The notes beneath the pieces are model-generated. The model searched no databases and was not told the origin of the DNA. It saw nothing but the letters and a program-made list of their open reading frames with translations. This document shows positions 6,801 through 14,745 of a stretch of DNA of 64,000 nt, in pieces. Source of the DNA: Ricordea florida (Eukaryota; Cnidaria; Anthozoa; Corallimorpharia; Ricordeidae); contig OX453281.1 of assembly GCA_949710005.1 (NCBI GenBank), positions 19,647,561-19,711,560 of the forward strand, in the 5' to 3' direction. A program made the position numbers and the translations under genes. Every line of letters begins with the position of its first letter. Within the stretch, counting starts at the first letter, position 1.

Positions 6801-9800
6801 AACGACGTGTCCGCCATGTTTTGAGCAGTATTTCCCAGGAACTACGTCATAACAACTGAAGCCAGTTTGATTAGGTTCATGTTACTTTCCCAATATGATA
6901 GTTGGTGGATTGAACGTGGACAAGCTGTGGTCTGAGGCATTCACTGGTACTTACTTGTTTCAAGTCTAATGGGTTTTTGACGTCATATAATTACCCCCTT
7001 AAGTCCAGGTGGATAGTTGTGGTCGTATACCGTGCCATGAAGTGTCGAGGTATATTTACAGCACTATCCAACCAACCCGATAAGTAATGGTAGTGGTTGT
7101 TTCAGTGTTTACGAAGTCTTTGAAATAGAAATTGAAATGTCCCTTGTTCAGAGACTGTCGAGAGGCCACTTTACTCCCGTCACCTAGGGTAGGGTACAAA
7201 CTAGATTGTTTCTAGGTTTGTTCTGTGGCGAGTATTAATTGTGACTTTTAAATTGTCTTTTCCTCTTTTCCCCGCCTCGAATAGCCCTCGCTAATTGCGG
7301 GCAAAAGTTTTGTAATGTTAGAATTTTCGCTTAGATCTAATAAAGACGGTTGGGTATTCCGAGTTGTGAGATCCAATCAAAATGCGCGAAAATTTCCATC
7401 CGCTGATTTGTTTTCTGAAGTAGAAATGTGAATGACATAAAGACAGTATCACCATAATCAGTTATTAAGGGGTATAGGGGATGTTATTGCAACGGTTTCT
7501 CTGTAAGCTTGCTTTTTATTAGTGATTTAGGGAAGGGCCACAGATTTATCAGTTTTAACTGTAAAGTGTTATTCTTCTTAAAGAAAGTTTTCTTTTCTTT
7601 TTTTCTTCTTTTTCTTTTTTTTTCTTCTTTTTTTCTTTTTTTTTCTTCTTTTTTTCTTCTTTTTTTTCTTTACGTTTCTGTTTTTTGTTCCTTTTTTCTC
7701 CTTTTTCTTTCTTTTCTTTTTCTTTTTTTCTTTTTTTTTTCTCACGGTAGACGGTCAATTCAAACCCTTTTAATCAGTTTGCAGTTGTGTGGGCAGTGTA
7801 GTACATGTACGAAGAAGCTTGTTATTTATCCTGATTTTTTTCTCGCAGACTCGCACGTCCTCTTAAGCTCAAGGAAACAGGAGAAGAAAGAACGCATGTC
7901 TGTTTTGAAGGACTGCCTGAACCAGGTAACGTACATTACAGTATGCAATATGTACCTGTTTTGATCGCGTTAGGAACTGTTTTGCAGAATAATGTGATTT
8001 TAGCCTTTTCATCTGTTAAACAAATCTTTTTGCGAAAAAAATGAATATAGTATATTTTGAGCTTTATGAAAGATGTATTTTTTGGTTACTGCATATGAAA
8101 AATTAATGATGCAGGAGCCAATATATAGAGGATATTACACGGTGGCGCGAAGATATGAATTTTATTTTCGGGTGGCAAAACAATATTTTACGAACGAGCG
8201 CAGCGAGTGAGTAAAGTATTGTTTTTGCCACGAGAAAATAAAATTCATATCTTCAAGCCGCCGTGTAATGCTCTTTTTATTATATAGACAAAAAGAATTC
8301 TTCGTGGGCGCGTGACGTCACAAAATTATGCAGATTATCTGGCGGCCATGTTGGTGCACAGGTCACGTAATTCATTTCGAAGTCCAGACCTATGTAGTTT
8401 GTAATATTGCTATGGATTCCGAAACATCAAGTTCTTTAGAAGACCTGAGCGTTGTGGAGAAAGATTACCAAGTGCTTTCAGAGTATTATAGAAGTCTCGA
8501 ACCTCATGTTAAGCGAAGATATCTGCTGAAAACATCTGCTGTAGGAGTAGATCCGGCTACTCTCTTGGACGAACAATGTGACGCGGACTGTATTCCCCCT
8601 GTAGAATCCATGGATCTGGTAAGCTACCTTGTCCTCACAACAAGCTACTACACGAAAGAACAGTTTAAAGCATATAAAAGCCTTCAGGCTTATAACCAGA
8701 TGGTTTCAGGGTTTGTAACCAATGTTCGTGGCCGTATCGTGAAGGATAATTACGTGGTTCTGGCTAGCGTGCGCCATTCACAGCGGATGAACGATGCTTT
8801 GGTTTCAGTCTGGCTGATAACCAGCATTGATGGCACAATTTTATCTTCCCACTGCCTTGGGTGCAAGGCCGGCCTTTCAGAGTCCTGCTCCCACATAGCT
8901 AGTGTTTTGTTTTACCTAGAGGCTTACACTCGAATCAACGATAAGCTGTCTTGTACCCAAGTCAAGTGCGCTTGGCTTTTGCCGTCATTTGTGAAAGAAG
9001 TTCCGTATGCCAAAATTGCCGATATAAATTTAACTTCCGCCAGAAAAATGAAAGCAGACCTCGACAAAAGCATCGATAGCTTATCACTCGGAGATCATGG
9101 AGCATCAGAGATGCCATCTTTTCAAGCTCGAGATTCTCAAGGGGGAACCCCAACACCAACACGTAGTGAAATGGATTTATTTTACTCTGAACTCAGCAAG
9201 TGTGAGACCAAAGCTGTTGCACTGTCCCTGATTAAGCCCCACGCAGAAGCGTTTGTCAAGAAAAGCCGCAACGTTCCAACAGTTTCGGATTTTTTTGATA
9301 GAAAATATTTGGCTTTTTCGTACCCAGACTTACTTACAGCTTGCAGCAAGGTTAAAATTCAGTTGTCGGAAAGTGACATGCTGCAAATTGAACAAGACAC
9401 AAGGTCACAAGCCAAAGGTTCAGGTTTCTTTAAACATAGAGCTGGACGCATTGGTGCATCTTTGAGTGGTGCAGTATGTCATACTAATCCAGCCCTTCCC
9501 TCACAGTCTCTCATCAAGTCCATCTGTTACCCGCATCTCTTTAAAGTAACTACTAAGGCAGTACTTCATGGCTGTCAACATGAGAAAGATGCCATTTTGC
9601 ATTATGAAACTGAAATGAAAAAGAATCACAGAGATTTTCAAGTAAAAGACTGTGGTACTTTTATCAACAGAGACTATCAATTCCTACATGCAACACCTGA
9701 TTTTTTGTGTTCATGTTCATGCTGTGGAGAAGGTTGTGGGGAGGTTAAGTGCCCAATATGCATTGAAGGTTCTGATTTTGAATCCTATCTTTCAATGAAA

Positions 9801-12800
9801 GCAACATGTTTGGAAAAGGTGAATGGAGTGTATAGACTTAAAAGAAAACACAATTACTACTACCAAGTACAACAGCAACTCTTCTCTGCAAATAAAGACC
9901 TTGGGTATTGTGACTTTGTAGTCTGTGCTGTTTGTAATGAGAAAGATACTGCCATTGTTCAGGAGCGAATATACAAAGACCACAAACACTGGGATGACTG
10001 CCTCCCTAAACTTATCACATTTTGGAAAACTTGTATTTTACCAGAAGTTCTTGGACGATGGTATACCAGGAGAATAACTAGTCCAGAAGGTCCTAGCACT
10101 TCAAACTTAAACTCAATTTGCTTTTGCAGAATGGACAAACAAGACACTACAGCAACATGTGCTAACCCTGCTTGCCTGTATGTTACTTTCCATCACTCTT
10201 GCCTGGCCATTTCGACTTCTATTCCGCCCACATGGTACTGCCCACTCTGTCGAAAGCTACCTCAGTTCCAGAAAAAAAAAGGAAAACCAAAGAATGTATC
10301 TGCCCCAGCAGAAGCCCTTAGCCTTTCTCATATATGTGTTTGCAAGGCCAAAGCAGAGAGTAATGCCAAGCTTCTGGAATGCCACAATGTCAGTTGTTCC
10401 AATGGAAAGTTTTTCCATCTGGGTTGTTTAAACTATAAACGGTTGCCTAACAACAGCAAATCCACATGGCAATGTCCAGCCTGTCGAGGATCTACAGCAC
10501 AATTTTCCAGCCACTGGGTGCCCAATCTTGGTCTTCCTCCCACACCCCCTACCCAGGGGTCACCTGGTGCAATTCCCAGACCCCCTACTCAGGCTTCACT
10601 TGTTGAACCTTGCATACCCACCCCTACCCAGGGCTCACTTGGTGTACCTTCTTCCCTCCTTATCCAGAAGGCAGTCCCTGTCATACCCCTTGCCCAAGGT
10701 GCACTACCTACAGTCCATCATGCTCCAACTAACACCAGAATTTATAGAACCCCTCATCCACACTTTAAGGACCTTCTTGGAGAGCTTGATAGTAATGACT
10801 ATAATGTGATACTCTCTATAAATGGATGGCTACACTGTTCAATAATTCAACAGGCTCATGTACTGTTACAAGAAGTAAATCCTATGATAGAGGGTTTTCA
10901 GAGACCAACACTTGGACCAATTAGAAATTTCACAATCATGACAGGTGAATTTATTCAGATACTTCATACAGGTAACCAGCACTGGGTCTGTGTGAGCTCG
11001 GTGGGTTGCTTGCCTGGCATGGTTAATCTTTATGATAGTTTATTCCATGATATCATTGAGACAGAGGTGGAAGAGCAAGTAAAGAGCATGATGGCTGGTG
11101 CCTATAAAGGTCTTCAGAATGTCCCTGTTCAACAGCAAAACAATGGTAGTGACTGTGGGGTATTTGCCATTGCATTTGCTACCTGCCTAGTGTATGGTAT
11201 CAAACCAGAAGATGTGGATTTTGATATTAGAAAAATGCGTCCACATCTGCTTAGTTGCTTCAAAAATAAGAAAATGTCACTTTTTCCAACAATAATTTAA
11301 GTGCACACATATGATAAACATAATATGAATGCAATGAATCAAGCTTAAAATTTTTTGGTATCATAATGAATTTAATTATTTTAATCATTAATTATTTTCT
11401 GATTAGAATTGAAATGAATTGCAGTAGACTGTAAATGTTTGTCTTGGAAAAAGTTTCACCAGGTTCAGGATTTCAAGAAATGGTATTTATGTAGCTGAAC
11501 CTTTCTGAGGGGACATGCCACCATACCCCCAGAGACTCAAGCCCTTCAATGGTGCTAGTGTCATGTCTGTTGACATCAATAACAACTCTGGCTAGTTCTA
11601 AATGGGAACAGCAACTTATTTAGAATCTTACTGGAAACCCTGATGGTTTAAATTAGGTTTTTCCACTATCAGAGATGTCAGCAACCTGTGAAATACATAT
11701 TGTTTACGTTCAATACGTGTCAGTAATTAAAGATTAAAGTTGTTTTCAGGCTTAATTTTACAGCTGCTTAAGTTGTGTACATAACTGCGATGATCAATTA
11801 ATGTCATTACATATTACTCCGCAGTTCAAATATATGGTCTTTCATATATTCATTTGCATCATTCTTTTCCATCTACAGGTATGTTATGAACTCACAATAT
11901 GACCAGCTCCCAGTAGGCTTGATAGATCAGTTGGTAGAGCACTGCTCCGGTATCGCAGAGGTCATGGGTTTGAATCCCGTTCAGGCCCGAGTTTTTTTTT
12001 TCAGGCTTAAATTTTACGGCTGCTTAAGTTGTGTACATAACTGCGATGATCAATTAATGTCATTACATAAAGATAAACAGTAAAGATTCACATAATCAAC
12101 TTTGCCTTATATTCAGTAGAATGATCAATGTTGTTAATTTTGTGACTAATCAAAAGGAATAATTGGTGGGCATAGATTGATCAGTGCAGAACAAACCCTA
12201 ATAATGCGATCAATCATAGGAACTCTGCTATCCACCGTGCCTGAAGGGTTACATTTAAGCAGATCTATGGGGAGTGTTCCTTGTAAAATAGTATATTTCC
12301 TCCGTAACAGGCCAATAACCCTCTCCACATGGATTCTCACATTAGCAATCCCTCTTGTGCGTTCCACATCTATAGGATCCAGCTGGGACTTTCCTTTCGT
12401 AAAGGCAGGAATTACAAGACTTGCTTGCTTGTACATCACACTGTCATGGATAGTAAATCCCCTGTCGGCCATAACCATGTCTCCAGGGAGAAGCTTTTCA
12501 AGTATTCCACAATTTTCTGTGAGATACTTATCTGAGGTGCGACCACCCCATGCTTCAGATACAAAAGAAATGGTTCCTTGAGGGGTTATACCAATAAGCA
12601 CCTTGATGGTGTTGTGGTGTTTGTAGTTAGAAAATGTTTGAGCCCTTGCTAGAAGGTTGCTTGGTCGATCAATAAAAATCTCAAAACAATCTAAAATAAC
12701 TGTTGTCCTTTTCCCAAAGGAATACTGGAAGCATTGTGGCATGGTAGCCCACAAACTCTCCCGGTCTGGCCAGGAAATAAGTGGGCTCAAACGAGCGTCC

Positions 12801-14745
12801 ATGACTTCCATCCAAGTAGATATTATACGATTAACGGTTCTTCTGGAGATTCCGAATCGGTAGGCCAGATCCTGTAAGAACACATTAAGTCTCAGTCTTA
12901 TCAGGACCAAAATAAACTCCTGGAACTGCGTCAGGCTCTTGGAGCTTTTATCAACATGTGGTGCAACATGGTTTAAAGTTGTTTTTAAAACTGAAAAGCA
13001 TGGCAGTCCAGTATAAAAACGGACTTTATCATCGTCGCCAGAAAAATAGCTTTCGCAGAACGGTTGGTAGGAGCTGGTTTTCTCAAACATGTAATCAAAC
13101 TCCTCCGTCTGACAACCTTGGTCTACACGCTGAAAGGAGTCATCCGAAAAACTACAAGACGGGAGACTGTCCTTAACAAGCGGTTGTTTTTCGTCAGTTT
13201 CTTCTTCCACAACGTTAAAATCTAAGGAACAGATGGTTTCTCCTGGTTCATGAAGTTTTTTTACCTTGCTCGCGGTCTCCAAAGCTTGCATTTCAAGGCC
13301 TCTCTTCCTTCGCTCTCTCACCCTATCTGCCCGAGCACTCATAGCCTCATGATCCACTTGGCGTCGTTTTGAATGTCCCAAATTTAACGTGGGTACCCAA
13401 TCCACATTGTGTTTGTCCCATAAAGGCGAAGGACGACCAGACACAAAATGCTTACTGCATACACGGTCGTTGCACAAAATCTTCTCAGTCAACTTCTCCC
13501 GACTAATGGCAGAGATCCACATCATTCGTCGCTCATGCGAAAGCTCTTCCTCCTGTTCCCCTCTATCTTTAACAACAGCAGGCACTCGAAAGAAAGAAAC
13601 ATTCTTATCTCGACCACTTCGCACCGAGCATCCGAGCACCATACATAAAACCATTGTGAAACCTTGCAAATTTCGTGTCCAAGAAAGGATCGCACGTAGA
13701 TTTGTTTACCTGACCTGTACACCAAAATGGCGGCGTAGCAACCGTTGCTACATTACTGATCACGTGAGCGCTCACCGAGAATTTTGGAAGGAAATTACCG
13801 AAATTACGTCATCGATAAACTCACGTGTGAGATTATGGAAAATAAACCACTCGGGTCCCGGATGTAGTTTTTATGAATTTTACGAGTGGTATATTTTCCA
13901 GTAAAACACTCGTGTCTATATCATAAATCAAAGGAAACATGAGTGATTGAGTGAGTGAAGGAGCCAGTCAGCGCATGTCTAGTATTTAGCCAATCACAAT
14001 GCACAATACAATTCGCGCACCGCAAGGAATTATAATTGTGTTTAAACTCAGAAGAGAATAATTTATGTAAAAGTAATGAAATCGAGGAAAGGCGATAGGT
14101 ATGGCAAAAAGGTCCGAATAAACTTAATAAATGCTGTAGCCGCATGCATGCAATGCTTGCCTATTTTTGGCTTTGTCACGGGCAAACTCAGAAAAATGAA
14201 AACACGAGTTCTCCCAACTGGAGTCCAAGCTACGACGCGATTACTAGTTCAGACGCTCTACCACTCGGGTATAGGATGCTCGTGGGAGCAAGATCATTAA
14301 ACGAGGTTTATGGGGAACACATCCTGCTGACTGCTAGGATTTGAATGTCAAAGTTAAAGGGTTTGAAATAATGAAAATGGTCTATTTTGAGCCTGAAGAA
14401 TGTGTGAAAGGTGTATTTCTGGCACTATCAAAGGCAAATGCGGGTAAAGAAAGCTTGAGTTCTTCCCAATAGTGGTCGAACTTGCGACCTTCCGGTTACT
14501 GGTTCAGTCGCTCTACCACTGAGTTACAGGAGACTCGTGGAAGCAAGGCCATTAAACTAGATTCATGGGACAAAACATCCTGCATACTGCAAAGAATTCG
14601 CACCTACGACCAAATGACTGTTACAAGACTGTCGTTACAGTAATAGCTCTTGCCGATCACGATGCATGAACATAATCACAATCTTCGATTTTCAGGTGAT
14701 TTTGACATCAAGGAGGTCCTTGATTCCGTGTACTTTTTCAGTTGA
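806..14745 (+). CDS. POLRMT: Mitochondrial DNA-directed RNA polymerase, C-terminal 277 residues (3' part of gene)
   Basis: Exons 806-1081, 3546-3887, 5340-5428, 7849-7925 and 14696-14745 have AG/GT borders and join in frame (278 codons including TGA at 14743-14745). This is the single-subunit T7-type polymerase that transcribes mitochondrial DNA. Exon 806-1081 carries the motif B/O-helix ([14 protein letters not shown]). Exon 3546-3887 carries [15 protein letters not shown] and motif C with the catalytic Asp (SVHDSFWTH). The third exon reads [17 protein letters not shown], as in the family's C-terminal part. The protein ends in YFFS, matching the family's conserved aromatic-Ser end. The N-terminal domains and promoter lie left of the window. 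The last intron (7926-14695) is swollen by a two-gene transposon. The first four exons are very secure. The last two rest on reading phase plus the C-terminal motif. Confidence 0.93.
1191..1363. repeat. Foldback element, 77-bp inverted arms (copy 1)
   Basis: Arms 1191-1267 and 1287-1363 are reverse complements with one mismatch that I could find, around a 19-base loop. Copies with the same arms occur at 34568-34836 (longer loop), and a shorter relative lies at 35740-35806. The flank 1141-1190 recurs in inverted order next to the copy at 34840-34893, so the unit is larger than the hairpin. It lies in a POLRMT intron. Confidence 0.85.
1699..1816. repeat. Dispersed repeat, direct copy of 2375-2487
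   Basis: The segment starts CTGGCCCATTTAATTACCC and ends in TGCCTGTATTTCTTCC. It is repeated in the same orientation at 2375-2487 within the same POLRMT intron. Scattered substitutions separate the copies. Confidence 0.75.
1865..2185. mobile_element. Composite palindromic MITE (copy 1)
   Basis: A hairpin (arms 1865-1910 and 1926-1971) is joined directly to a segment with terminal inverted repeats TATAAATCTACTAG at 1974-1995 and 2164-2185. A second hairpin around 2085-2125 lies inside. The same two-part design occurs at 17388-17686. The 5' flank 1820-1860 matches the inner start of the MITE family seen at 19123, 44614 and 48407. Confidence 0.7.
2220..2345. repeat. Dispersed repeat, inverted copy of 51355-51590
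   Basis: The segment contains GATCCATTTGCCCATGGGTTGCAT and GCAACCATCGAGCTATGGACGC. The reverse complement of this order is found at about 51355-51590 in an ASS1 intron, where a further inverted repeat of the TATGGACGCA end is present. Confidence 0.65.
2375..2487. repeat. Dispersed repeat, second copy of 1699-1816
   Basis: Direct repeat of the unit at 1699-1816. It runs immediately into the T-rich tract at 2505. Confidence 0.75.
2505..2692 (+). repeat. T-rich (TTTG/TTTTTTG) low-complexity tract
   Basis: About 190 bases of T runs broken by single G, rarely C. It produces spurious open frames on both strands (Phe/Cys-rich on +, Lys/Thr-rich on -). Confidence 0.9.
3411..3507 (+). repeat. (TTG/TTA)n microsatellite
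   Basis: An imperfect trinucleotide run of TTG with TTA and GCT variants, ending about 40 bases before POLRMT exon 3546-3887. Confidence 0.85.
3943..4190 (+). mobile_element. tRNA-derived SINE, family B (copy 1)
   Basis: The tRNA-like head (GGTAGTATAGTGGTTAGCAT with a degenerate B box) is followed by a body containing CCACCCAGGTGGATAAATGGG, a GCTGGGG-type segment and AACCGGGAT. Inverted copies of the body are at 20565-20715 and 45185-45450. The tRNA part does not fold to intact stems, so I call a SINE and not a tRNA gene. Confidence 0.7.
4500..4785 (-). mobile_element. tRNA-derived SINE, family D (copy 1)
   Basis: On the minus strand the head reads GCGTGGCCGAGTGGTTAGGGC, an A-box, then a B-box (GGTTCGATTCTCG). 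The body has ACCTGGATATGTAATACGG and GAGTTTCATATCC and ends in a TATG/TAAG-type tail. The plus-strand copy is at 45700-45937, followed by a long microsatellite. Confidence 0.8.
5474..5747. mobile_element. MITE with ~26-bp terminal inverted repeats
   Basis: The left end TTTATTACATCCATTTTAAA and the right end are reverse complements over about 26 bp with two differences. The 274-bp body is non-coding. It lies just after POLRMT exon 5340-5428. Confidence 0.8.
5771..5870. repeat. Palindromic element with ~39-bp arms
   Basis: Arms 5771-5810 and 5832-5870 (GCAATTTTGGTCTGAA... and its imperfect complement) surround a GC-rich loop of alternating GCGC. Together with the neighbouring MITE it forms a dense repeat cluster. 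Confidence 0.7.
5999..6545 (+). repeat. Repeat A, uninterrupted copy
   Basis: About 545 bp starting ATCAAAGGCTCC, with TACCTCATGG near the start and CCATGAGGTA at the end. A second copy (55348-57432) is colinear but interrupted at the position equivalent to 6508-6518 by a 1.5-kb insertion. This copy therefore gives the empty-site sequence. It also lacks a 25-bp hairpin present in the other copy. Confidence 0.85.
6650..6975. repeat. Dispersed inverted-repeat element (copy 1)
   Basis: It starts near TTTGAAACGTGTAACGCGCG and contains CTTTTCCAGATTCAATA and a run ending TTTCAAGTCTAATGG. The same order is found at 16349-16606, whose ends are inverted copies of each other (TTGAAACGTGTAA against its complement). 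Confidence 0.55.
7586..7742 (+). repeat. Polypyrimidine (TTTC)n tract
   Basis: Roughly 155 bases of almost pure T and C, ~105 bases upstream of POLRMT exon 7849-7925. Overlapping Phe-rich and Lys/Glu-rich frames here are artefacts. Confidence 0.9.
8131..8273. repeat. Left-end hairpin of the ISL2EU-like element
   Basis: Arms 8131-8190 and 8211-8273 are imperfect reverse complements (ATTACACGG, GAAGATATGAATTTTATTTT and GGTGGCAAAACAATA, with their complements). The loop holds GAACGAGCGCAGCGAGTGAG. It is either part of the transposon terminus or a separate palindromic MITE beside it. Confidence 0.7.
8345..8370 (+). promoter_or_regulatory. 26-bp motif shared upstream of both transposon genes (left copy)
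   Basis: It matches the complement of 13706-13731 at 23 of 26 positions. It contains a CCAT(G/T)TTGG core preceded by a GC-rich stretch, resembling a YY1-type (GCCGCCAT) promoter element, and GGTCACGTAA. It ends 41 bp before the probable ATG at 8412. A CRE-like GTGACGTCAC lies just upstream at about 8312-8321. Confidence 0.6.
8412..11300 (+). CDS. Transposon accessory protein: SWIM - YqaJ nuclease - two PHD fingers - Ulp1-like protease (962 aa)
   Basis: Single-exon frame, intact. An in-frame ATG at 8328 would give 990 aa. I prefer 8412 (M29) because 8345-8370 looks like promoter. Residues are numbered on the 990-aa form. SWIM-type zinc motif at 176-189 (C176, C179, C187, H189). YqaJ-like PD-(D/E)xK nuclease about 365-570 with E419, D458, E472-V-K474 and the Gln motif [13 protein letters not shown] finger 1 at 598-641 (C598, C600, C611, C616, H622, C625, C638, C641). 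PHD finger 2 at 670-719 with the same C4HC3 pattern. A Pro/Thr/Gln-rich linker at 736-790. C48-type protease about 820-975 with triad H885, D903, C943 and Q937. It probably works with the neighbouring transposase, processing DNA ends or chromatin/SUMO targets. That role is inference. Confidence 0.85.
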   Translation: MDSETSSSLEDLSVVEKDYQVLSEYYRSLEPHVKRRYLLKTSAVGVDPATLLDEQCDADCIPPVESMDLVSYLVLTTSYYTKEQFKAYKSLQAYNQMVSGFVTNVRGRIVKDNYVVLASVRHSQRMNDALVSVWLITSIDGTILSSHCLGCKAGLSESCSHIASVLFYLEAYTRINDKLSCTQVKCAWLLPSFVKEVPYAKIADINLTSARKMKADLDKSIDSLSLGDHGASEMPSFQARDSQGGTPTPTRSEMDLFYSELSKCETKAVALSLIKPHAEAFVKKSRNVPTVSDFFDRKYLAFSYPDLLTACSKVKIQLSESDMLQIEQDTRSQAKGSGFFKHRAGRIGASLSGAVCHTNPALPSQSLIKSICYPHLFKVTTKAVLHGCQHEKDAILHYETEMKKNHRDFQVKDCGTFINRDYQFLHATPDFLCSCSCCGEGCGEVKCPICIEGSDFESYLSMKATCLEKVNGVYRLKRKHNYYYQVQQQLFSANKDLGYCDFVVCAVCNEKDTAIVQERIYKDHKHWDDCLPKLITFWKTCILPEVLGRWYTRRITSPEGPSTSNLNSICFCRMDKQDTTATCANPACLYVTFHHSCLAISTSIPPTWYCPLCRKLPQFQKKKGKPKNVSAPAEALSLSHICVCKAKAESNAKLLECHNVSCSNGKFFHLGCLNYKRLPNNSKSTWQCPACRGSTAQFSSHWVPNLGLPPTPPTQGSPGAIPRPPTQASLVEPCIPTPTQGSLGVPSSLLIQKAVPVIPLAQGALPTVHHAPTNTRIYRTPHPHFKDLLGELDSNDYNVILSINGWLHCSIIQQAHVLLQEVNPMIEGFQRPTLGPIRNFTIMTGEFIQILHTGNQHWVCVSSVGCLPGMVNLYDSLFHDIIETEVEEQVKSMMAGAYKGLQNVPVQQQNNGSDCGVFAIAFATCLVYGIKPEDVDFDIRKMRPHLLSCFKNKKMSLFPTII
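11301..11746. other. 3' flank of the YqaJ gene, no feature recognised
   Basis: AT-rich non-coding sequence between the YqaJ stop codon and the SINE-like array. I saw no canonical AATAAA close to the stop; an ATTAAA variant occurs near 11728. Confidence 0.4.
11747..12070 (+). mobile_element. tRNA-derived SINE array, family A (252-bp unit)
   Basis: A tail segment (TTCAGGCTT ... GCTTAAGTTGTGTACATAAC ... GATGATCAATTAATG) occurs at 11747-11811 and again at 11999-12068, 252 bp apart. Between them lies a tRNA-like head, about 11917-11988, with A box TAGATCAGTTGGTAGAGCA, an anticodon-loop-like CCGGTAT and B box GGGTTTGAATCCCG. The head would read as tRNA-Thr(GGT), but the anticodon stem has a mismatch and it is joined to the SINE tail. 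It lies between the two convergent transposon genes. Confidence 0.75.
12146..13654 (-). CDS. THAP-domain DDE transposase (502 aa)
   Basis: Single-exon frame, intact. The start at 13654 ([11 protein letters not shown]) gives the canonical beginning of a THAP finger; the frame upstream of it opens only on TTG. Residues are numbered from that upstream end. THAP C2CH at C9, C14, C71, H74 with W51. A basic coiled region about 100-125. HTH_Tnp_4-like helix-turn-helix about 246-296 ([19 protein letters not shown]). DDE_Tnp_4 catalytic core with D327 (ILDCFE), D402 (MADRGF) and E449 ([10 protein letters not shown]). The THAP finger should bind the element's ends and the DDE core cut and join DNA. It is antisense to POLRMT and converges on the YqaJ gene. 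No frameshift or stop is seen, so it may still be active. Confidence 0.9.
13706..13731 (-). promoter_or_regulatory. 26-bp motif shared upstream of both transposon genes (right copy)
   Basis: Reverse complement of 8345-8370 at 23 of 26 positions. It ends 51 bp upstream of the transposase ATG at 13654. On the minus strand it is preceded by GCCGCCATTTTGG, a good match to a YY1 site. A TGACGTAATTT sequence lies further upstream near 13810. Confidence 0.6.
13820..13914. repeat. Right-end hairpin of the ISL2EU-like element
   Basis: Arms 13820-13853 (CACGTGTGAGATTATGGAAA...ACCACTCG) and 13883-13914 (CGAGTGGTATATTTTCCAG...CACTCGTG) are imperfect reverse complements. They lie just inside the outer TCTATAT at 13915-13921. 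Confidence 0.7.
14180..14600 (-). mobile_element. Two tandem tRNA-derived SINE fragments, family C
   Basis: On the minus strand both 14200-14300 and 14455-14545 contain a tRNA-like A box (AGCTCAGTGGTAGAGCG type) and a B-box-like GGTCGCAAGTTCGACC or degenerate form. Shared flanks are CTCCCAA/TTCCCAA upstream on + and CACATCCTGCT/CATCCTGCATACTGC downstream. Neither folds into an intact tRNA. Confidence 0.6.
14696..14745 (+). CDS. POLRMT: POLRMT terminal exon (50 bases)
   Basis: The acceptor TTTTCAG at 14689-14695 is followed by [16 protein letters not shown] and a TGA. It accepts the phase-1 end of exon 7849-7925 (which ends in LPEPG). The polymerase family ends in Phe-Phe-Ser, and these residues sit near the active site in known structures. 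The exon is too short for ORF finders and lies 6.8 kb beyond the previous exon, so it is easily missed. Confidence 0.85.

What the first reader, a model, noticed from the sequence alone, without database searches (positions are those of the whole stretch)
8412..11300. Fusion of SWIM, YqaJ-type nuclease, two PHD fingers and a Ulp1-like protease in one transposon protein
I see a complete PD-(D/E)xK set (E419, D458, E472-x-K474), two C4HC3 fingers and an H885-D903-Q937-C943 protease set in one exon. A DNA nuclease, histone readers and a SUMO/ubiquitin-like protease in one mobile-element protein would link DNA end processing to chromatin and SUMO control. I know YqaJ as an ISL2EU partner and Ulp1 domains in some other transposons. 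I do not recall this chain being described.
Basis: partly seen in the sequence, partly recalled or inferred. Interest (0 to 1): 0.8.

Follow-up and report, generated by a model that had tools for sequence, protein, structure and literature searches.

The report
Five-domain helper protein of ISL2EU transposon
A recently mobile jumping gene, probably from a coral or a relative, makes a helper protein that joins a DNA-end-chewing enzyme, three zinc-binding modules and a SUMO-protease-like enzyme in one chain; the same chain recurs in related elements of corals, sea anemones and lancelets, and we found no paper describing it in the library we could search.

Summary
The chain is real. The 962-aa single-exon ORF (8412-11300) carries a SWIM-like zinc domain, a lambda-exonuclease/YqaJ nuclease, two ING-like PHD fingers and a Ulp1/SENP protease, backed by profiles or predicted folds, with catalytic residues intact. 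It is ORF1 of a two-gene ISL2EU-type transposon (8299-13780, AT target duplication) with a convergent THAP-DDE transposase. The host genome holds 26 full-length ORF1 copies, mean pairwise difference 0.14%, 25 without a stop; 25 could be read at both ends. The chain is the rule in its family: 91 of 120 listed homologues reach Ulp1, and 14 of 15 divergent host copies do; shorter ones stop at scattered places. Named hosts are anthozoans and lancelets. 'Histone readers' is not shown: PHD1 lacks the H3K4me3-cage aromatic in 87 of 87 rows. ISL2EU descriptions seen mention only YqaJ. Extra find: an inverted subterminal motif at both ends of three families. Likely role (inference): a transposition helper that resects donor ends and strips SUMO-like tags at the site. 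New variant of a known kind.

The parts
8299..13780 (.). ISL2EU-type transposon, 5482 bp
   Evidence: Similarity between host copies ends here on both sides
8297..8298 (.). Left target-site duplication AT
   Evidence: AT in 24 of 25 copies, TT in 1
13781..13782 (.). Right target-site duplication AT
   Evidence: AT in 25 of 25 copies
8299..8311 (+). Left terminal inverted repeat (10 of 13 match the right one)
13768..13780 (-). Right terminal inverted repeat
8342..8370 (+). Left subterminal inverted repeat (29 bp, 86% to the right one; core 8344-8361)
13706..13734 (-). Right subterminal inverted repeat (core 13715-13732)
8412..11300 (+). ORF1, 962-aa helper protein
8637..8981 (+). SWIM-like region, residues 76-190; ligands C148, C151, C159, H161
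9414..10091 (+). YqaJ / lambda-exonuclease-like nuclease region, residues 335-560; E391, D430, E444, K446, Q485
10107..10259 (+). PHD-type finger 1, residues 566-616
   Evidence: (5.7e-11 to ING)
10311..10499 (+). PHD-type finger 2, residues 634-696
   Evidence: (3.7e-6 to ING)
10767..11282 (+). Ulp1/SENP-like protease, residues 786-957; H857, D875, Q909, C915
12146..13654 (-). ORF2, THAP-HTH-DDE_Tnp_4 transposase, intact, convergent with ORF1

Best explanation
The protein is ORF1, the helper protein of an ISL2EU-type cut-and-paste transposon that was mobile very recently. The THAP-DDE transposase (ORF2) recognises the element ends, perhaps through the terminal and subterminal repeats, and cuts and joins at AT. 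ORF1 works at the same site: its lambda-exonuclease-like domain resects broken DNA ends (most likely the donor break left by excision), its zinc modules (SWIM and two PHD-type fingers) hold it to chromatin or partner proteins, and its Ulp1 domain removes SUMO or a related Gly-Gly-ended modifier from proteins at the break or from the transposase. Resection would favour repair from the sister or homologue and so restore the donor copy. Shown by sequence: the anatomy, intact active sites, the two genes lying in one mobile unit, and recent mobility. Inferred: enzyme activity, substrates, and the role in repair.
For: Each domain has a profile or fold match. Catalytic and zinc residues are near-invariant while linkers are free to change (mean pairwise identity 0.23-0.38 in the three linkers against 0.49-0.67 in the five domains; 73 rows). 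ORF1 lies inside an AT-bounded unit, 25 copies read at both ends, 26 distinct left flanks. Two divergent host families (ORF1 57% and 50% identical) both carry an intact convergent THAP-DDE transposase. ORF1 shows constraint: lineage L026 against the other copies dN/dS 0.15 (13 synonymous, 7 non-synonymous), within the 25 other copies pN/pS 0.58, Fisher p 0.043, small numbers. W806 and W858 sit where Ulp1 has two Trp that clamp the Gly-Gly tail (recalled); the alignment range 787-955 to 430-620 fits. Domains share history: Spearman of pairwise identities 0.35-0.59 against permutation maxima of 0.15-0.20.
Against: No biochemical datum exists. Whether ORF1 is needed for transposition is unknown; Han et al. 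[quoted passage not shown] The nuclease could be an endonuclease. PHD1 lacks the cage aromatic, so chromatin tethering is unproven. Copies with a broken or partial ORF1 exist (L023, L028-L030) and may have moved in trans or decayed later. The empty-site query did not complete. The Fisher test is borderline.
Confidence: 0.5

Rival explanations
1. Anti-silencing first: the Ulp1 and PHD-type modules act against SUMO-dependent heterochromatin at the element's own copies, and the nuclease is secondary.
For: A protease of the SENP fold with its active site kept beside ING-like zinc fingers. SUMO-dependent transposon silencing in animals is recalled, not from a call.
Confidence: 0.2
2. Direct catalysis: the YqaJ domain takes part in cleavage or trimming of transposon ends within the transposition complex, and the protease matures or recycles that complex.
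For: Two genes in one mobile unit in three families; both ends share a subterminal repeat.
Against: DDE transposases usually suffice for cleavage and joining (recalled); of the PHIS groups only ISL2EU has YqaJ, others have Myb/SANT proteins, and Spy elements have the transposase ORF only, so related transposases do without it. No adenain-like self-cleavage site in ORF1.
Confidence: 0.2
3. ORF1 is a host or viral gene that merely lies beside or was captured by the transposase, with no role in mobility.
For: YqaJ and Ulp1 folds also occur in large DNA viruses.
Against: ORF1 lies inside the AT-bounded unit in 25 copies; two divergent families keep the same gene pair and orientation; constraint.
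Confidence: 0.05

Closest known systems
ISL2EU group of the PHIS superfamily (Han et al. 2015, PMC4482050)
   Same: THAP-HTH-DDE transposase ORF plus YqaJ ORF; AT target duplication; short imperfect TIR; animal hosts (here by nearest named relatives)
   Different: ORF1 also carries SWIM-like, two PHD-type and Ulp1 domains; SWIM, PHD and Ulp1 do not occur in the paper's main text. TIR starts TC, not the usual GG; subterminal repeats 43 and 46 bp from the ends
Ginger1 transposons with C-terminal Ulp1 and PHD (PMC2836005, passages)
   Same: A Ulp1 protease and, in Ginger1-9_HM, a PHD finger in a cnidarian DNA-transposon protein
   Different: There they are fused to an integrase-like transposase; here to a separate YqaJ protein with two PHD-type fingers
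Mutator elements with Ulp1 (cited in PMC2836005)
   Same: Ulp1-type protease carried by a DNA transposon
   Different: Different transposase; no YqaJ in the passages seen
Lambda exonuclease / YqaJ recombination nucleases
   Different: Eukaryotic multidomain protein; extra conserved Cys cluster near the catalytic D and ExK
ING-family PHD fingers
   Same: Nearest solved fingers for both PHD1 and PHD2
   Different: Cage Trp replaced by a non-aromatic residue in PHD1 (87 of 87); one aromatic kept in PHD2 (84 of 85)

Membership tests
ISL2EU (criteria of Han et al. 2015) | AT target-site duplication | tested here: met
   Left AT in 24 of 25 copies (1 TT), right AT in 25 of 25; 1 of 26 copies unreadable
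ISL2EU (criteria of Han et al. 2015) | Target A|AT|T | tested here: inconclusive
   The base outside is A or T in 25 of 25 (left) and 24 of 25 (right), but often not A before and T after
ISL2EU (criteria of Han et al. 2015) | Two ORFs: THAP-HTH-DDE transposase and YqaJ protein (most autonomous elements) | tested here: met
   also in two divergent families
ISL2EU (criteria of Han et al. 2015) | TIR 6-259 bp | tested here: met
   13-bp imperfect TIR, 10 of 13 identical
ISL2EU (criteria of Han et al. 2015) | TIR usually begins GG (described as usual, not universal) | tested here: not met
   Begins TC; not treated as defining because the paper says 'usually'
ISL2EU (criteria of Han et al. 2015) | Transposase falls in the ISL2EU clade of the PHIS tree | not tested
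   No reference transposases were at hand
YqaJ / lambda-exonuclease nucleases | PD-(D/E)xK core with E, D, ExK, Q and the fold | tested here: met
YqaJ / lambda-exonuclease nucleases | 5'-3' exonuclease activity | not testable with these tools
   Needs purified protein
Ulp1/SENP proteases (C48) | H-D-Q-C catalytic set and fold | tested here: met
Ulp1/SENP proteases (C48) | SUMO specificity | not testable with these tools
PHD fingers | C4-H-C3 zinc ligands | tested here: met
   PHD1 85 of 86, PHD2 83 of 85 rows
PHD fingers that read H3K4me3 (ING type) | Aromatic cage: Trp before Phe-His and Tyr before the first Cys (positions from the HMMER alignments; the cage role is recalled) | tested here: not met
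   PHD1: no aromatic at the Trp position in 87 of 87, Tyr position I/V in 67 of 87. PHD2: F/Y at the Trp position in 84 of 85 but I/V at the Tyr position in 84 of 86
SWIM domains | CxCx(n)CxH zinc site (recalled) with strands followed by a helix | tested here: inconclusive

The most novel reading that the evidence does not exclude
A distinct ISL2EU lineage of cnidarians and lancelets encodes a self-contained break-handling enzyme: a lambda-exonuclease-like resection nuclease tethered by SWIM and PHD-type modules and carrying its own de-SUMOylase, so that the transposon itself sets repair choice and SUMO signalling at the breaks it makes. Its two genes share one conserved, inverted subterminal motif at both element ends.
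Probability: 0.3. Interest if true: 0.75.

Novelty: new variant of a known kind. Interest (0 to 1): 0.55.

Why it matters
The function of the second ORF of ISL2EU elements is an open question in print (Han et al. 2015). The chain predicts two separately testable activities, resection and removal of a SUMO-like tag, in a protein from an element with many near-identical and largely intact copies, so it can be assayed directly. It would be a natural case of a nuclease, chromatin-type modules and a SUMO-type protease in one protein. It also warns annotators: a relative is filed as 'Inhibitor of growth protein 5' in Stylophora and another as 'YNG2' in Exaiptasia.

Tried and rejected
Rejected: gene-model artefact or unique fusion. 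A stable class of relatives without the PHD-Ulp1 extension was sought with a shorter query that excludes proteins over about 849 aa (120 of 372 hits listed). The 79 newly listed short relatives end at scattered query positions, 364 to 757 with one at 961, so they look like truncated copies; more distant ISL2EU proteins (fish, insects and others) were not reached. A PHD-PHD-Ulp1 module without the rest was sought (120 of 173 listed); the 113 newly listed rows all match this family's own HMMs. Adenain-like self-cleavage sites: none in ORF1. The hairpins 8123-8290 and 13814-13922 were first taken for the element ends; the copies show that both lie outside it. Viral and prokaryote contig scans found no relative. 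Foldseek had no match at E <= 0.001 for the SWIM model. The transposase has no NCBIfam hit. Left ends of three further host families: one motif match with 3 mismatches, two with none up to 5. A first motif control used the first 1,200 bases of each locus as fetched, which for minus-strand copies is inside the element; the proper control on oriented outside flanks is (0 matches with up to 2 mismatches and 1 with up to 3 in 35.9 kb). The host copy number of the transposase and a paralogous empty site could not be obtained.
Full report
WHAT IS THERE. Pfam finds YqaJ (3.8e-15) and Peptidase_C48 (1e-5); the convergent ORF 12146-13654 (-) is a THAP-HTH-DDE_Tnp_4 transposase (its ATG) with D327, D402 and E449 present in the 507-aa numbering (that these form the DDE triad is recalled). 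Against solved structures, a 33-sequence profile matches ING PHD fingers (5.7e-11), a Ulp1-like SUMO protease (4.5e-7) and the mimivirus R354 nuclease (2.7e-5). Separate profiles place PHD2 with ING fingers (3.7e-6) and the C-terminus with Ulp1/SENP (1.3e-6).

CONSERVATION. Of the 119 other listed homologues, 87 were aligned with the window; the 32 left out are mostly short. Nuclease set intact in 84 of 86 gap-free rows, protease set in 78 of 81, PHD1 in 85 of 86, PHD2 in 83 of 85, SWIM in 79 of 84, and all 29 residues in 65 of 73 rows with letters at all of them. A Cys cluster inside the nuclease (C435, C437, C438, C442, C447, C466) is kept in 83 to 88 of 87-88 rows; it may bind metal (inference). 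The two Trp that clamp a Gly-Gly tail in Ulp1 (recalled) have counterparts W806 (83 of 85) and W858 (83 of 83).

PHD FINGERS ARE NOT CANONICAL H3K4me3 READERS. In the HMMER alignment the ING cage Trp falls on residue 592 of PHD1, which is never aromatic (0 of 87); the Tyr position is I or V in 67 of 87. In PHD2 the Trp position is F667, F or Y in 84 of 85, but the Tyr position is I or V in 84 of 86. They may bind unmodified H3, another mark, or a protein partner.

FAMILY, NOT ONE-OFF. One search gave 153 homologues, 120 listed (one is the window's own). With family-specific HMMs 72 of 120 have every part and 91 of 120 reach Ulp1. The short ones end at scattered places, not at one boundary. Named hosts include Montipora, Stylophora, Acropora, Oculina and Nematostella, Exaiptasia and Branchiostoma. 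Pairwise identities of the five domains correlate (rho 0.35-0.59; permutation maxima 0.15-0.20, 200 permutations each), as expected if they have mostly travelled together.

THE ELEMENT. The host genome (unnamed, 537.8 Mb; probably anthozoan, judged only from the nearest named relatives) holds 59 matching stretches: 26 span residues 1-962 at 99-100% identity, 25 of them without a stop (counts there are lower bounds). Mean pairwise difference of these 26 ORFs is 0.14%, maximum 0.83% (325 pairs). Comparing copies, similarity ends sharply at 8299 and 13780. Of 26 copies, 25 could be read at both ends (one is masked): AT on the left in 24 and TT in 1, AT on the right in 25; the base outside is A or T in 25 of 25 on the left and 24 of 25 on the right. 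The 26 left flanks all differ, so these are separate insertions. The hairpins at 8123-8290 and 13814-13922 lie outside.

CONSTRAINT. The most divergent full-length copy (L026) differs from the commonest codon of the other 25 by 13 synonymous and 7 non-synonymous changes (dN/dS 0.15), whereas distinct changes within the 25 are 9.5 and 19.5 (pN/pS 0.58); Fisher p 0.043. Numbers are small, but the pattern is that of a protein selected while moving and less so after insertion.

OTHER FAMILIES IN THE SAME GENOME. Fifteen divergent copies (49-58% identical) appear; 14 of 15 also match in the Ulp1 region. For two families the neighbourhood was read: both have an intact convergent THAP-DDE transposase, 60% and 57% identical to the window's.

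A SHARED SUBTERMINAL MOTIF. A 29-bp inverted repeat (86%) lies 43 and 46 bp inside the two ends (0 of 200 shuffles reach its score). Its core, SGCCATKTTKGYGYACAG, occurs twice in the 64 kb with up to 2 mismatches, against 0.06 expected (the pattern was drawn partly from these two sites, so this is descriptive). The core recurs at both ends of family 2 (0-1 mismatch; 3 of 200 shuffles reach that repeat's score) and near both ends of a family-3 copy whose exact limits were not set (2 mismatches each), i.e. 6 of 6 ends of three families. Left sides of three further families: one match with 3 mismatches, two with none up to 5. Control on outside flanks of the 26 copies: 0 matches with up to 2 mismatches and 1 with up to 3 in 35.9 kb. 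It could be a THAP-transposase site or a promoter element: in the window it starts 70 and 80 bp before the two start codons and holds a YY1-like core (YY1 consensus recalled).

LITERATURE. Han et al. 2015 (PMC4482050; parts 1-2 of 4 and passages read) describe ISL2EU by AT duplications and two ORFs, the second with YqaJ; PHD and SWIM and Ulp1 do not occur in the text; its supplements were not seen. PMC9179366 (passages) says the same. PMC2836005 (passages) reports Ulp1, OTU and PHD in Ginger1 transposases and proposes roles in repair. Passages of PMC12730594 and PMC9587614, PMC7826175 and PMC10225492 add nothing on this chain. Searches with ISL2EU, YqaJ, Ulp1, PHD, SWIM and cnidarian terms showed no description in the listings. 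The library is open-access only and Repbase cannot be searched, so 'undescribed' means 'not found there'.

MECHANISM. Shown: two genes in one AT-bounded mobile unit, both with intact active sites in this copy. From the families: the nuclease should digest duplex ends and the protease should cut a Gly-Gly-ended modifier. Inferred: that this happens at the donor break and promotes its repair and the element's copy gain. The rivals (anti-silencing, direct catalysis) remain open.

VERDICT. Observation confirmed; novelty reduced because the chain is a family standard, but apparently unreported and now tied to a recently mobile element.

Noticed in passing
8344-8361 (+) and 13715-13732 (-); L051:2260, L052:1168, L059:1033, L060:1055, L061:282, L062:615, L063:300: Inverted subterminal motif SGCCATKTTKGYGYACAG shared by three ISL2EU-type families of one genome; candidate THAP-transposase site or promoter element
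   Followed up: partly
11740-12069: tRNA-Thr-like stretch (11916-11988), possibly a SINE, between 96% direct repeats, lying between the two convergent ORFs; present in 24 of 26 host copies, the other two being masked or interrupted
   Followed up: partly
8123-8290 and 13814-13922: Two hairpin-forming sequences just outside the element on each side
   Followed up: no
P0076 and P0196: Public records name relatives of this transposon protein 'Inhibitor of growth protein 5' (Stylophora) and 'YNG2' (Exaiptasia); P0076 also holds two Ulp1 domains
   Followed up: partly
P0090: A Nematostella record joins a Pif1-type helicase domain to this protein; probably a gene-model chimera with a neighbouring element
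   Followed up: no
9714-9809 (ORF1 residues 435-466): Highly conserved Cys cluster near the catalytic D and ExK of the nuclease; possible metal site
   Followed up: no
7575-7745: Long T/C tract upstream of the element
   Followed up: no
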